Source: an uncultured Acidovorax sp.
GTDB taxonomy: Bacteria > Pseudomonadota > Gammaproteobacteria > Burkholderiales > Burkholderiaceae_C
Assembly: GCA_913774955.1 (NCBI GenBank)
Contig: CAJYKV010000026.1
Span: 1 to 33,251, forward strand
Reading direction: 5' to 3'
DNA length: 33,251 nt
Shown: positions 24,637 through 28,621 of the stretch, in pieces
How positions within the stretch are numbered: the first letter of the stretch is position 1
How the letters are laid out: the number at the start of each line of letters is the position of its first letter
Made by a program: the position numbers and the translations under genes
The notes under the pieces: generated by a model
Databases searched by the model: none
What the model was told of the DNA's origin: nothing
What the model saw: the letters and a program-made list of their open reading frames with translations, nothing else

Positions 24637-26820
24637 TCAGATCGCCAGCGGATCCACATCCACCAGCCAGCGCACCAGCCCGCGGTGGGCCGGGTCCGAC
24701 CGGCAGGCGTGCAGCACCGGCTGCCATGCCGCGAGGAAGCGCTGCAGCGCCGCGCGGCTCGGGCTCTCCAGCAGCATCTGCGCGCGCTCCACGTCGGCCA
24801 CGCGCTGGATCGCCAGTGGCACGGGCGGGAAGACGGTCACGTGCTCCAGCCCCGGCAGTCCGGCCTCCCGCGCCGCCTCGGCGCACGCGTTCAGAAACCC
24901 CTGCGCCACCTCCTGCGTGCGCGCGTCGGCACGCACCAGCGCCTGGTAGGCGAAGGGCGGCATCCCGGCCTCGGCACGATCGGCGAGCTGCCGGCCCGCG
25001 AAAGCCGGGTAATCGTGCCGGCGCAGCGCCGCATACACGGCATGGTCCGCATGGTAGGTCTGCACCCACATTTCGCAGGGGCTGCCCTGGGCCGCCACGT
25101 AGGCCGCGTCCCGGCCCGCGCGGCCGGCCGCCTGCATCAGCAGCGCGAACAGCCGCTCGGGCGCCCGGAAATCGCTGGAAAACAGGGCGCCATCGGGCTG
25201 CACCGCCGCCACCAGCGTGATCCGCCGGAAGTCGTGCCCCTTGGCCACCATCTGCGTGCCCACCAGCACGTCCACCTCGCCCGCGTGCACCTGGGCGAGC
25301 TGTTCCTCCAGAGCGCCCTTGGCCCTGGTGGTGTCGGCGTCGATGCGGGCCACGCGCGCCGCGCGGCGCTCCGGCGTGATGACGTTGCGCAGCAGTTGGG
25401 CGAGCTGTTCCTCGAGCTGTTCGGTGCCGCGGCCGATGGGGGCGATGTCCGGGTTGCCGCAACCCGGGCAGGCATAGGGCACGCGCTGCGCGAAGCCGCA
25501 GTGGTGGCAGCGCAGCGTGCGGTCGATCTTGTGGAACACCTGGTGGGCGCTGCAGTGCGGGCAGTCGCTCTTCCAGCCGCATTCGGTGCAGTGCAGCACC
25601 GGGGCGAAGCCGCGGCGGTTGAGCAGCACCAGGCATTGTTCGCCGCGCTCCACGCGTTCGGTGATCGCGGCCACGAGCGGCGGCGAGAACACCGCGCCGC
25701 GCGGCTGCTGCGCCATGTCCACCAGCCGCACGCGCGGCAGCGCACCCGCGCCGATGCGGCTGGGCATGTGCAGCCGCAGGTAGCGCCCGCCCGGGTCGCC
25801 CTCCGCGGGTGGGCGGCTCGCGTGCCAGCTCTCCAGCGACGGCGTGGCCGATCCGAGGATCACCTTCGCGCCCTGCTCGCGCCCGCGCCAGACGGCCAGG
25901 TCGCGCGCCGAATAGCGCGCACCCTCCTGCTGCTTGTAGCTCGCGTCGTGCTCCTCGTCCACCACGATCAGCGCCAGGCCCGGCAGGCTCGCGAACACCG
26001 CCATGCGCGTGCCGAGCACGATGCGCGCCTGGCCGGAATGCGCGGCCAGCCAGCTTTTCAGCCGCTGCGGATTCGTCATGCCGCTGTGCAGCGAGACGAC
26101 GCTGTCCGCGCCGTAGACCGGTGCGAAGCGCGCGAGGAAGCGCGCCTCCAGCTGCGGCGTGAGGTTGATCTCCGGCACCATCACCAGCGCCTGCGCGGCG
26201 GGGTCGGCGGCCAGGGCCTGTTGTACGCAGCGCAGGTACACCTCGGTCTTGCCGCTGCCCGTGCTGCCGTAGAGCAGGAACGGGCCGGGCTCGGCCGCGA
26301 TGCGCTCCGTTGCTGCCTGCTGTTCGGGGCTCAGGTCGTGGGGTTCGCTCGCGTAGGGCGGCGTGGCCTCGCCGGCCATGGAGGCCACTGCCACGGGCGC
26401 GCGCTTCAGCCGCCGCGCGAGCTGCACCGGGGTGAGATCGCGCAACTGCGGCGGCAGCGCGGCCAGTGCCACCTCACCCACCGCGCGCTGGTAGTAGCGG
26501 GCCGCGAACGCCACCAGGCGGCGCCAGGACGCGTCCAGCGGCGCCACGCCCTCCAGCACGCCCGCGACGGGCCGCACGGCCGCGCCTGAGGGCAGCGGAA
26601 CGGCTTCCAGGGGCGCATCCCACACCACCCCCAGCACTTCGCGCGATCCCAGCGGCACCCGCACCAGGGTGCCCGGCGCGATCGCCACCGGACTCGCATA
26701 GCTCAGCGGTTCGCCCACAGCGCTGTGCGTGGGCGTCTGCACCGCCACCGACACGATCACGGGATCGACGACGTGGGCGGGCAGCGAAGGGGGGGGCGAA
26801 GGGGTCGCGGAGGAGGGCAC
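24637..26820 (-). CDS. priA: Primosomal protein N' (replication restart helicase PriA)
   Basis: About 727 residues (E. coli 732). PriA reloads the replisome at collapsed forks. Visible order: the 3'-OH binding domain (VSVAVQTPTHSAVGEPLSY, PGTLVRVPLGSREVLGVVW); the helicase core with Walker A GSTGSGKTEVYLR; VDEEHDASYKQ (DEEH motif); LGSATPSLESW; zinc-binding cysteines in CTECGWKSDCPHC and CHHCGFAQRVPYACPGCG; VLVGTQMVAKGHDF; and QAAGRAGRD. The start is uncertain: GTG 26820 is used here, GTG 26760 is nearer the conserved domain, and ATGs at 26928, 26958 and 26979 would push the gene into the DnaA-box region with non-conserved sequence. None has a clear ribosome site. It converges on the effector gene with 38 bases between. 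Confidence 0.95.
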   Translation of the reverse strand: MPSSATPSPPPSLPAHVVDPVIVSVAVQTPTHSAVGEPLSYASPVAIAPGTLVRVPLGSREVLGVVWDAPLEAVPLPSGAAVRPVAGVLEGVAPLDASWRRLVAFAARYYQRAVGEVALAALPPQLRDLTPVQLARRLKRAPVAVASMAGEATPPYASEPHDLSPEQQAATERIAAEPGPFLLYGSTGSGKTEVYLRCVQQALAADPAAQALVMVPEINLTPQLEARFLARFAPVYGADSVVSLHSGMTNPQRLKSWLAAHSGQARIVLGTRMAVFASLPGLALIVVDEEHDASYKQQEGARYSARDLAVWRGREQGAKVILGSATPSLESWHASRPPAEGDPGGRYLRLHMPSRIGAGALPRVRLVDMAQQPRGAVFSPPLVAAITERVERGEQCLVLLNRRGFAPVLHCTECGWKSDCPHCSAHQVFHKIDRTLRCHHCGFAQRVPYACPGCGNPDIAPIGRGTEQLEEQLAQLLRNVITPERRAARVARIDADTTRAKGALEEQLAQVHAGEVDVLVGTQMVAKGHDFRRITLVAAVQPDGALFSSDFRAPERLFALLMQAAGRAGRDAAYVAAQGSPCEMWVQTYHADHAVYAALRRHDYPAFAGRQLADRAEAGMPPFAYQALVRADARTQEVAQGFLNACAEAAREAGLPGLEHVTVFPPVPLAIQRVADVERAQMLLESPSRAALQRFLAAWQPVLHACRSDPAHRGLVRWLVDVDPLAI

Positions 26821-26998
26821 GGTGCGAGTATCGGCGGCAGTGCCGGAGTCTGCCCCAAGCGGGTGGAGACTGCCGGTATCGCCCCGGAAGGCGTTTTTCC
26901 GCGAATCTGTGGATAACTTTGTGGGCATCCGTGGACAGGCAGGGGGCAGGCGGTGCATGACTGCGGCGGTCGACGCCATCGCGCCGCTGGGTCGTTTC

Positions 26999-27055
26999 AG
27001 AAAAAGTCTTTGAAATTCAATGACTTTGATTGAATGACCTCATGTTCTTCTGTGA
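26999..27055. other. AT-rich stretch with inverted repeat inside the DnaA-box cluster
   Basis: A run of roughly 55 bases rich in A and T (aaaaagtctttgaaattc and onward), unusual in this genome, between the first and second perfect DnaA boxes. It contains the perfect inverted repeat attcaa (27015-27020) and ttgaat (27030-27035) with a 9-base spacer. It could be a DNA unwinding element or a repressor site. Confidence 0.45.
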
Positions 27056-27337
27056 GCGGGCGCCTGTGGATTGTTACAGGTCTGGACGCCTCGGAGTGTG
27101 CATAAGTCCACTTGTCAAGAGTTCCGCGGGGCCTTGGAATGTGCTAGGTGGCCCCTGGAATTGCCGCTCCGCCTGCGATTCGCTCGGCAAGTGCTTGATT
27201 TCTCGGGCTTTTTGGGGAAATCCCGAAATTCTGTGGATAACTTTGTTGATATCCGCTGTGGACACCGCGCAGGTCCTTGATGGCATTGGGTTCTGCGGCA
27301 ATGCCCGGAATTTCGGCACCCCTTGCATGCCTATGTG

Positions 27338-27350
27338 AATCAACGACTTG
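27338..27350 (+). promoter_or_regulatory. IHF-binding consensus site
   Basis: AATCAACGACTTG matches WATCAA-N4-TTR at every defined position. It lies between the third and fourth perfect DnaA boxes and overlaps a one-mismatch box. Combined IHF and DnaA sites are typical of oriC, datA and DARS loci. Confidence 0.6.
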
Positions 27351-27508
27351 GCGCTGTCCCGTAAAAATCTTCGAAACACCGGCGACGGCGCCTGGGCTGC
27401 TGAATGCTGCATTGCAGCGCGCGGCGCGGTGTGCATAAGTGCGACCCGACCGTATGGGCGGGTGCTGTCGGGCCTCGGCCCGCCGTGCGGCGGGTCCGGC
27501 GCCCGGCG

Positions 27509-28621
27509 TCACCCCCCGCGCAGCGTTCGCGAGTAGGTGTGCACGGCTTCCACCAGCGCGGCCACGTGCTCCGGCGGCGTGTACTGGCTGATGCCGTGAC
27601 CCAGGTTGAAGATGTGCGTCGGGCCGGTGGTGCCGCGGTCGGTGTGCGGGGTGCCGAAGGCGTCCAGCACGGCGCGTGCCTGCGCGGCAACGGTCTCCGG
27701 CGGGGCGAACAGCACGTTCGGGTCGATGTTGCCCTGCAGCGCCTTGCCCGGGCCGCCCACGGCGCCGCCTACCAGGGCGCGGGCGCGTGCCAGGTTGGCC
27801 GTCCAGTCCAGGCCCAGCACCTCGCAATCGAGGCCGTTCATGTCCTCCAGCCAGAGCGCGCCGCCCTTGGTGAACACGATGCGCGGCACGTCGGTGCCGT
27901 CCACCCCGGTGCGCTTCAGCTGCGCCAGCACGCGCCGGGTATAGGCCAGGCTGAACTCCTGGAATGCGCCGTCCGCCAGCACGCCGCCCCAGCTGTCGAA
28001 CACCATCACCGCCTGCGCGCCCGCGTCGATCTGCGCATTCAAATAGGCCGCCACGGCATCGGCATTGATCGCCAGGATGCGGTGCATCAGGTCCGGGCGG
28101 GAATACATCAGCGTCTTCACCAGCCGGTAGTCGTCGCTGCCCTTGCCCTCCACCATGTAGCAGGCCAGCGTCCAGGGGCTGCCGGAGAACCCGATCAGCG
28201 GCACCCGGCCGCCGAGCGCACGGCGGATGGAGGTCACCGCATCGAACACGTAGCGCAGCTTCTCCATGTCGGGCACGGCCAGCTCGGCCACCGCGGCCTC
28301 GTCGCGCACCACCCGGGCGAAGCGCGGGCCCTCGCCTTCGGCGAACGACAGGCCCAGGCCCATCGCGTCCGGCACCGTCAGGATGTCGGAGAACAGGATC
28401 GCCGCGTCCAGCGGAAACCGTTCCAGGGGCTGCAGCGTCACCTCGGTGGCGTAGTCCACGTTCGTCGCCAGCCCCATGAAACTGCCCGCCCGCGCGCGCG
28501 TCGCCTTGTACTCCGGCAGGTAGCGGCCGGCCTGGCGCATCAGCCACAGGGGCGTGTAGTCGGTGGCCTGGCGGCGGCAGGCGCGCAGGAAGGTGTCGTT
28601 CTGGAGCGGGGCGAAGGTCAT
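27509..28621 (-). CDS. hemE: Uroporphyrinogen decarboxylase
   Basis: A 370-residue enzyme of the usual length that decarboxylates the four acetate side chains of uroporphyrinogen III to give coproporphyrinogen III in haem synthesis. Signatures: [15 protein letters not shown] (the N-terminal active-site motif with two conserved Arg), [16 protein letters not shown] (catalytic Asp), [17 protein letters not shown] (second signature), [23 protein letters not shown], and [14 protein letters not shown] at the end. The ATG at 28621 gives [18 protein letters not shown], the standard start. Upstream (downstream on the plus map) is the MarR gene in the same direction with a 63-base gap. The long gene-free region with DnaA boxes follows its stop. 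Confidence 0.97.

What the first reader, a model, noticed from the sequence alone, without database searches (positions are those of the whole stretch)
26908..27438. Four co-oriented perfect DnaA boxes plus an IHF site between hemE and priA
TTATNCACA occurs four times in 531 bases, all on one strand, with 17- and 12-base extended direct repeats, an AT-rich stretch and a perfect IHF consensus. In Caulobacter and other alphaproteobacteria oriC adjoins hemE, so an origin-like element beside hemE in a beta-proteobacterium is striking. It could be oriC, a second DnaA-dependent site (datA/DARS type), or an element that couples haem or restart genes to replication.
Basis: partly seen in the sequence, partly recalled or inferred. 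Interest (0 to 1): 0.85.

Follow-up and report, generated by a model that had tools for sequence, protein, structure and literature searches.

The report
DnaA-IHF replication control site near priA
The spot between the hemE and priA genes is probably not the chromosome's starting point for replication but an old, widely shared DNA switch resembling those that, in E. [quoted passage not shown]

Summary
Four perfect DnaA boxes (0.08 expected), 4 of only 21 in the genome, lie on the minus strand between hemE and priA with two perfect IHF sites. oriC is unlikely: a better candidate lies 29 kb from dnaA on another contig, and in a complete congener the site is 0.49 Mb from dnaA. The boxes form two copies of a module: strong box A, strong box B, a weak box 12 bp before B and, typically, an IHF site 109-111 bp before B. 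A scored version follows hemE in 50 of 60 genomes (34 of 36 in the family, 16 of 24 other families) and precedes priA in 14 of 29 non-beta genomes, mostly chosen among triad carriers. Many copies add a reverse box 14 bp after B, the geometry of the E. coli DARS cores; in the window it is degenerate, leaving a datA-like set. A sister copy sits at xseA-exbB. Best reading: a DnaA-activity control element working like datA/DARS2 through IHF looping; whether it inactivates or reactivates DnaA is undetermined. New variant of a known kind.

The parts
27430..27438 (-). Box A1, TTATGCACA, distal strong DnaA box of module 1
27338..27350 (-). IHF consensus CAAGTCGTTGATT (9/9), 110 bp before B1
27257..27265 (-). 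Extra weak box GTGTCCACA (2 mismatches), 25 bp before B1; conservation not tested
27244..27252 (-). Weak box III ATATCAACA (7/9), co-oriented, exactly 12 bp before B1
27232..27240 (-). Box B1, TTATCCACA, proximal strong box of module 1
27218..27226 (-). Position of reverse box I (B+14); degenerate here, 5 of 9
27188..27200 (-). Second IHF consensus AATCAAGCACTTG (9/9), 40 bp after B1; recurs at B+39 to B+41 in many Comamonadaceae
27097..27105 (-). Box A2, TTATGCACA, module 2
27065..27073 (-). Extra weak box CAATCCACA (2 mismatches), module 2; conservation not tested
26920..26928 (-). Weak box III of module 2, ATGCCCACA (6/9), 12 bp before B2
26908..26916 (-). Box B2, TTATCCACA, module 2; box I position 5 of 9; no IHF match of 8/9 or better in the scanned offsets
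27509..28621 (-). hemE (uroporphyrinogen decarboxylase), upstream neighbour
24637..26820 (-). priA (primosomal helicase), downstream neighbour; start inferred

Best explanation
The site is a non-coding DnaA-activity control element, working like E. coli datA/DARS2. DnaA binds strong boxes A and B; IHF bends the DNA at a fixed distance from B so that A-bound DnaA meets the DnaA pair on the weak box and B; the assembled oligomer changes the nucleotide state of DnaA and so helps time initiation at a distant oriC. Shown: the layout, its fixed spacings, its conservation and its duplication in this genus. Inferred: binding, looping and the effect on DnaA. In this genus box I, which DARS sites need, is degenerate; what remains (two co-oriented strong boxes around an IHF site plus a co-oriented weak box) and the origin-proximal place favour datA-like inactivation (about 0.4) over DARS-like reactivation (about 0.25).
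For: Layout score hits 50 of 60 genomes within about 1 kb after hemE, at 33.5-39.5; maximum of 1200 shuffles 28.5. Weak-box (-12), reverse-box (+14) and IHF (-110) peaks are the same in 78 elements outside the family and 74 inside it (inside, +14 is second to the mirror image of the -12 box). IHF of 8/9 or better at B-107..-112 in 134 of 152 elements against 1.1% at other offsets; where a single perfect IHF site exists (85 of 152), IHF-to-B is 109-111 bp in 80 of 85, while A-to-IHF falls in clusters 69-70, 76-80 and 87-89 in 82 of 85. The triad geometry equals E. coli DARS1 and DARS2 cores (12 and 14 bp); E. coli datA has weak-12-strong, IHF, strong, all co-oriented (PMC5742627 passages). Triad pattern in 266 of 369 genomes of the class, no reversed-control match in the rows shown. 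Element upstream of priA in 14 of 29 non-beta genomes (27 of the 30 genomes chosen carry a triad). In some families it sits away from hemE and priA. An IHF-alpha gene passes its cut-off (120.3 against 120.25); the IHF-beta candidate scores 116.8 against 119.95.
Against: No binding or activity data. The window copy lacks a good box I, so it fails a DARS-defining feature; in datA the weak box flanks the other strong box and the strong boxes are 162 bp apart, not 189-198. Module 2 has no good IHF site. Eight of 24 other families show no element within about 1 kb after hemE. Distance from dnaA is not constant across betas: 44% of the chromosome in G272. The recurring place upstream of priA, oriented towards it in the cases looked at, also fits a gene-regulatory role.
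Confidence: 0.62

Rival explanations
1. DnaA-dependent promoter control of priA (or a hemE-priA operon): DnaA and IHF bound upstream couple restart-helicase levels to the DnaA cycle.
For: Element upstream of and oriented towards priA in betas and in 14 of 29 other genomes (which scanned that strand only). In L015, L024 and L031 the boxes lie about 1.5 kb from hemE but still directly before priA; in G019 too the element stays with priA, about 1.5 kb from hemE.
Against: The same module occurs away from priA at xseA-exbB, and near fabF-pabC, proS-like and metG-like genes in some families (these gene names recalled from the translations). No sigma-70-like site in 26800-27560, although that scan is weak evidence. 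Gene control would not require the DARS 12/14 triad.
Confidence: 0.18
2. A plain DnaA titration cluster: strong boxes that soak up DnaA near the origin, without nucleotide-state chemistry.
For: Only 21 perfect boxes in the genome, 4 here; 0.41-0.49 Mb from dnaA in six congeners. Titration on the E. coli chromosome is argued in PMC12371093 (passages).
Against: Titration does not need an IHF site at a fixed 110 bp, a weak box at exactly 12 bp, or one fixed strand.
Confidence: 0.12
3. It is oriC or a second replication origin.
For: DnaA boxes, IHF sites, a 50-bp stretch of 70% AT.
Against: No trio-like motif. In G007 the samples on either side of the locus (4.90 and 5.05 Mb; locus 4.99) are both negative, though the profile is noisy: one positive sample at 4.6 Mb makes local sign changes between 4.1 and 4.9 Mb, and the dnaA region is blurred between 5.4 and 0.5 Mb. 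A better candidate lies 29 kb from dnaA. The element sits at quite different chromosome positions in other betas.
Confidence: 0.03
4. Chance, with no function.
For: Boxes are short motifs.
Against: 50 of 60 genomes, shuffles never reach the hit range; 95 of 300 genomes carry the two-box pattern against 1 of 300 for the reversed control.
Confidence: 0.01

Closest known systems
E. coli datA (DnaA-ATP hydrolysis, DDAH)
   Same: Two strong co-oriented boxes around one IHF site of the same orientation, and a weak co-oriented box 12 bp before a strong box; about 0.47 Mb from oriC by the map positions in PMC5742627 (passages).
   Different: Strong boxes 162 bp apart instead of 189-198; weak box beside the first strong box, not the second; reverse box 12 bp after box 3, where many relatives of this element have it at 14 bp; next to glyVXY/queG, not hemE-priA; duplicated here.
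E. coli DARS1 and DARS2 (DnaA-reactivating sequences)
   Same: Weak III - 12 bp - strong II - 14 bp - reverse I core geometry in many relatives of this element; DARS2 has an 8/9 IHF match 99 bp before box II in the same orientation.
   Different: In the window box I is degenerate; E. coli DARS2 shows no co-oriented box near -188; Fis sites not examined; different genomic place.
Chromosomal DnaA-box clusters of B. subtilis and Streptomyces called analogous to datA (named in PMC5742627, passages)
   Same: Clusters outside oriC said to restrain initiation.
   Different: Not compared at sequence level here.

Membership tests
datA | Two strong boxes, same orientation, around an IHF site | tested here: met
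   Module 1: A1, IHF 9/9, B1; not module 2
datA | Essential weak box co-oriented beside a strong box | tested here: met
   III 12 bp before B1, but at the opposite strong box from E. coli
datA | Genomic place between glyVXY and queG | tested here: not met
   hemE-priA; so not filed as a member
datA | Origin-proximal | tested here: inconclusive
   7.7-10% of the chromosome from dnaA in six congeners (G004, G006, G007, G009, G013, G016), far in some other families
datA | IHF-dependent hydrolysis of DnaA-bound ATP | not testable with these tools
   Needs biochemistry
DARS | Boxes III and II co-oriented, 12 bp apart | tested here: met
DARS | Box I head-to-head with II, 14 bp after it | tested here: not met
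   5 of 9 in both window modules; 7 of 9 or better in 44 of 78 elements outside the family and 12 of 74 within it
DARS | IHF site in the regulatory region (DARS2) | tested here: met
   9/9 at B-110, module 1
DARS | Fis sites (DARS2) | not tested
   No scan was made
DARS | ADP release from DnaA | not testable with these tools
   Needs biochemistry
oriC | DnaA-trio/unwinding element beside the boxes | tested here: not met
   No trio-like string in 26773-27508; an AT-rich 50 bp exists
oriC | Near dnaA | tested here: not met
   dnaA on another contig; 0.41-0.49 Mb away in six congeners
oriC | At the GC-skew switch | tested here: inconclusive
   17 samples of 20 kb from G007: both sides of the locus negative, but the profile is noisy

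The most novel reading that the evidence does not exclude
An ancestral DnaA-IHF control element (A - IHF - III - II - I) is shared by beta- and gammaproteobacteria, lies beside priA, and has a sister copy at xseA-exbB. In this genus the two have begun to split into an origin-proximal datA-like copy (strong A kept, box I decayed to 3-6 of 9, module duplicated) and an origin-distal DARS-like copy (A decayed to 7 of 9, box I 5-7 of 9). Both datA and DARS would be derivatives of one module, and the E. coli DnaA cycle a special case of an older scheme.
Probability: 0.3. Interest if true: 0.85.

Novelty: new variant of a known kind. Interest (0 to 1): 0.72.

Why it matters
Control of DnaA by datA and DARS has been worked out in E. 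coli. The passages seen say that DARS-like sequences exist in many proteobacteria (PMC10380432), that DARS2 spacing is conserved in E. coli-proximal beta- or gammaproteobacteria (PMC5742627), and that the DARS2 core is conserved among gammaproteobacteria related to E. coli (PMC4245941); none names this locus. A defined, scorable element at a fixed place in 16 of 24 other betaproteobacterial families sampled gives specific sites to delete, and a natural series with and without box I in which to ask what makes a site inactivate or reactivate DnaA.

Tried and rejected
oriC: judged unlikely (see rivals). Link to the Caulobacter hemE-oriC neighbourhood: rejected as coincidence. Known RNA: no Rfam match up to E = 1 in 26700-27700. 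Strict helical phasing: a periodicity test on 121 dereplicated A-B spacings did not single out 10.5 bp (R 0.60, against 0.63 at 9.5), so I claim only clusters about 8-11 bp apart. My first orientation of the loci was faulty for unoriented genome loci and was redone.

Limits of the counts. Nine loci (L120, L124, L137, L138, L202-L206) were dropped before the counts, all without hemE and priA nearby. Seven have 1-4 of 9 at the weak-box position; L137 has 7 of 9 there, and L205 is a re-fetch of L139 (xseA-type gene, 6 of 9). L139 and L140 were kept. L136 and L200 are one site counted twice, and some species may stand in both collections. The 152 elements were found by the two-box pattern or after hemE, so A and B are there by selection, and the finder favoured pairs with an IHF match and a weak box; box I was not used in that choice. 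The score was designed after on partly the same loci; its stretches were taken by hemE position, except that seven came from loci first fetched by pattern at the same place. The second-site search requires three letters of box I. One search scanned only the strand of priA.

Odds: the novel case went from 0.35 to 0.3 because one search shows that box I at the second site is only 5-7 of 9 in the genus. Literature: the listings (at most 20 titles each) showed nothing about such an element at hemE-priA; letter case is ignored, so 'datA' and 'hemE' also matched 'data' and 'heme'. Subscription journals are mostly missing, and the original DARS paper was not seen.

Full report
What is there. The window is one whole contig (C26, 33,251 bases) of a 4.78-Mb, 31-contig genome. 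Its HemE is 94-95% identical to those of two Paracidovorax species, the nearest named hits, so this is most likely that comamonad genus. Four perfect DnaA boxes lie on the minus strand between hemE and priA, against 0.08 expected, and make up 4 of 21 in the genome.

They form two modules. Read along the minus strand, each has a box A (TTATGCACA) and, 198 or 189 bp on, a box B (TTATCCACA). Module 1 has a 9/9 IHF consensus 110 bp before B1, a weak co-oriented box 12 bp before it, and a second 9/9 IHF site 40 bp after it. Module 2 keeps both strong boxes and a 6/9 weak box but no IHF match of 8/9 in the scanned offsets.

Conservation in the genus and family. All 17 genomes of the genus (own included) carry four boxes in the same order with A1-B1 197-199, B1-A2 135-136 and A2-B2 188-189. 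Among 86 loci with at least one module (named and unnamed sets together, overlaps possible) 37 have two modules and 49 one. L009 has six boxes. L015, L024 and L031 have about 1.5 kb inserted after hemE, with four boxes intact directly before priA.

Conservation beyond. The two-box pattern is in 95 of 300 genomes of the order; its reversed control in 1 of 300. Of 30 loci given by that search 24 have hemE and 23 of these also priA. I then fetched 60 stretches from listed matches (four of them re-fetches; not every remaining match was taken): 41 have both genes, one has priA only on a short contig, and 18 have neither. For a count taken by gene position I scored stretches of about 1 kb after hemE in 60 genomes (own and 59 relatives): 50 pass, 34 of 36 in the family and 16 of 24 other families; 1200 shuffles reach at most 28.5, the hits 33.5-39.5. 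Of the two family misses, G019 has the element about 1.5 kb from hemE beside priA; the other, G024, is a 65%-complete assembly.

Anatomy. Averaged over 78 elements outside the family, the best-matching co-oriented box position near B is B-12 and the best reverse one B+14; within the family (74) B-12 is best and B+14 second to the mirror of B-12. IHF peaks at B-110 in both. IHF of 8/9 or better lies at B-107..-112 in 134 of 152, against 1.1% in other positions between A and B. Among the 85 of 152 with a single perfect IHF site, IHF-to-B is 109-111 in 80, while A-to-IHF is 69-70, 76-80 or 87-89 in 82. The steps are about 8-11 bp; I do not claim strict 10.5-bp phasing, which the test did not single out. 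A fixed bend near B and a distal box moved by about a turn is what a loop would need (inference).

E. coli comparison. In MG1655 the DARS1 core reads weak-12-strong-14-reverse and DARS2 the same; datA reads weak-12-strong, IHF, strong at +162, reverse box 12 bp later. These are my readings of the sequence at the known loci; which boxes matter is from PMC5742627 (passages). Outside the family the reverse box I is bimodal: 44 of 78 at 7/9 or better, 31 of 78 at 4/9 or less. Within the family 12 of 74 reach 7/9. The window has 5/9 twice. PMC10380432 (passages) states that the head-to-head I-II pair is functionally essential for DARS, so I do not file the window copy as a DARS; it has datA's parts in another arrangement and place, so I do not file it as datA either.

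Class-wide. The triad pattern occurs in 266 of 369 genomes of the class, with no reversed-control match in the rows shown. Of the 23 non-beta loci shown oriented, 12 have both a co-oriented box of 8/9 or better at -186 to -192 and IHF of 8/9 or better at -108 to -112; 11 do not. Of 29 priA loci from non-beta genomes, 14 pass the element score upstream of priA, one of them weakly (L301, A 6/9 and IHF 5/9). I chose the 30 genomes by handle and 27 of them carry a triad (one gave no PriA match), so this is not a prevalence estimate.

Second copy. The window's genome has another triad at C27:97457-97480, with IHF 9/9 at -108, a weak A (7/9) at -185 and box I 6/9. In one search, 47 of 60 genomes carry the strict triad; of its 29 newly given loci 25 match both xseA and exbB (Pfam check of one xseA and one ExbB-type protein). 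In the genus 15 of 17 have it (G004 and G005 lack the strict pattern), with box I at 5, 6 or 7 of 9 in 2, 9 and 4 of these, against 3-6 of 9 at the hemE site of the 17; the contrast is modest and the search asked for part of box I. In five congeners with one-contig chromosomes it is 42-50% of the chromosome from dnaA (G006, G007, G009, G013, G016), while the hemE site is 0.41-0.49 Mb, 7.7-10%, from dnaA in these and G004. Outside the genus positions vary; G031 has its triad about 0.8 Mb from dnaA.

Origin. dnaA is on C15 at 92 kb, with a single perfect box in its upstream region. At C15:62.9-63.7 kb two repeats of DnaA boxes, GC cluster, TTACTACTA and an AT-rich stretch resemble the known unwinding arrangement (the trio idea is recalled, and mentioned in a PMC5742627 legend). 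The strict box-trio pattern is found in 5 of 22 genomes tried. Skew in 17 samples of G007 is noisy: all six samples at 0.5-2.7 Mb are positive and seven of eight at 3.1-5.4 Mb negative, the exception being 4.6 Mb; samples at 20, 100 and 250 kb are mixed. The site at 4.99 Mb lies between two negative samples.

Conclusion. Conservation, fixed spacing and shared parts with datA and DARS support a DnaA-activity control element. Whether it inactivates, reactivates or merely binds DnaA, or serves priA expression, needs experiment. What seems new is the place, the breadth, the distal A box with a fixed IHF slot, the duplication, and the paired second locus; the general kind is known.

Noticed in passing
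L003 2880-3720 (G000:C15:62.9-63.7 kb): Candidate oriC: two repeats of DnaA boxes, GC cluster, TTACTACTA trio-like motif and AT-rich stretch, 29 kb from dnaA rather than beside it.
   Followed up: partly
L254 (G000:C27:97457-97480): Second triad with perfect IHF site between xseA and exbB, in 15 of 17 genomes of the genus and roughly opposite dnaA in five congeners.
   Followed up: yes
L005 2321-2464 (G000:C1:54820-54963): Two TTATCCACA 135 bp apart in a repeated context, with what looks by eye like an IHF consensus (AATCAACCACTTG) between them; a further possible DnaA-IHF cluster.
   Followed up: no
L006 2422-2441 (G000:C7:476921-476940): Two perfect DnaA boxes 11 bp apart, on a contig other than that of dnaA.
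   Followed up: no
L183, L184, L185, L187, L188, L191-L193: In some families the module sits at other genes (fabF-pabC, proS-like, metG-like; names recalled from translations), so it can stand apart from hemE and priA.
   Followed up: partly
rows G402, G514, G374, G580: Some genomes of the class carry six to nine triads, more than the two DARS of E. coli.
   Followed up: no
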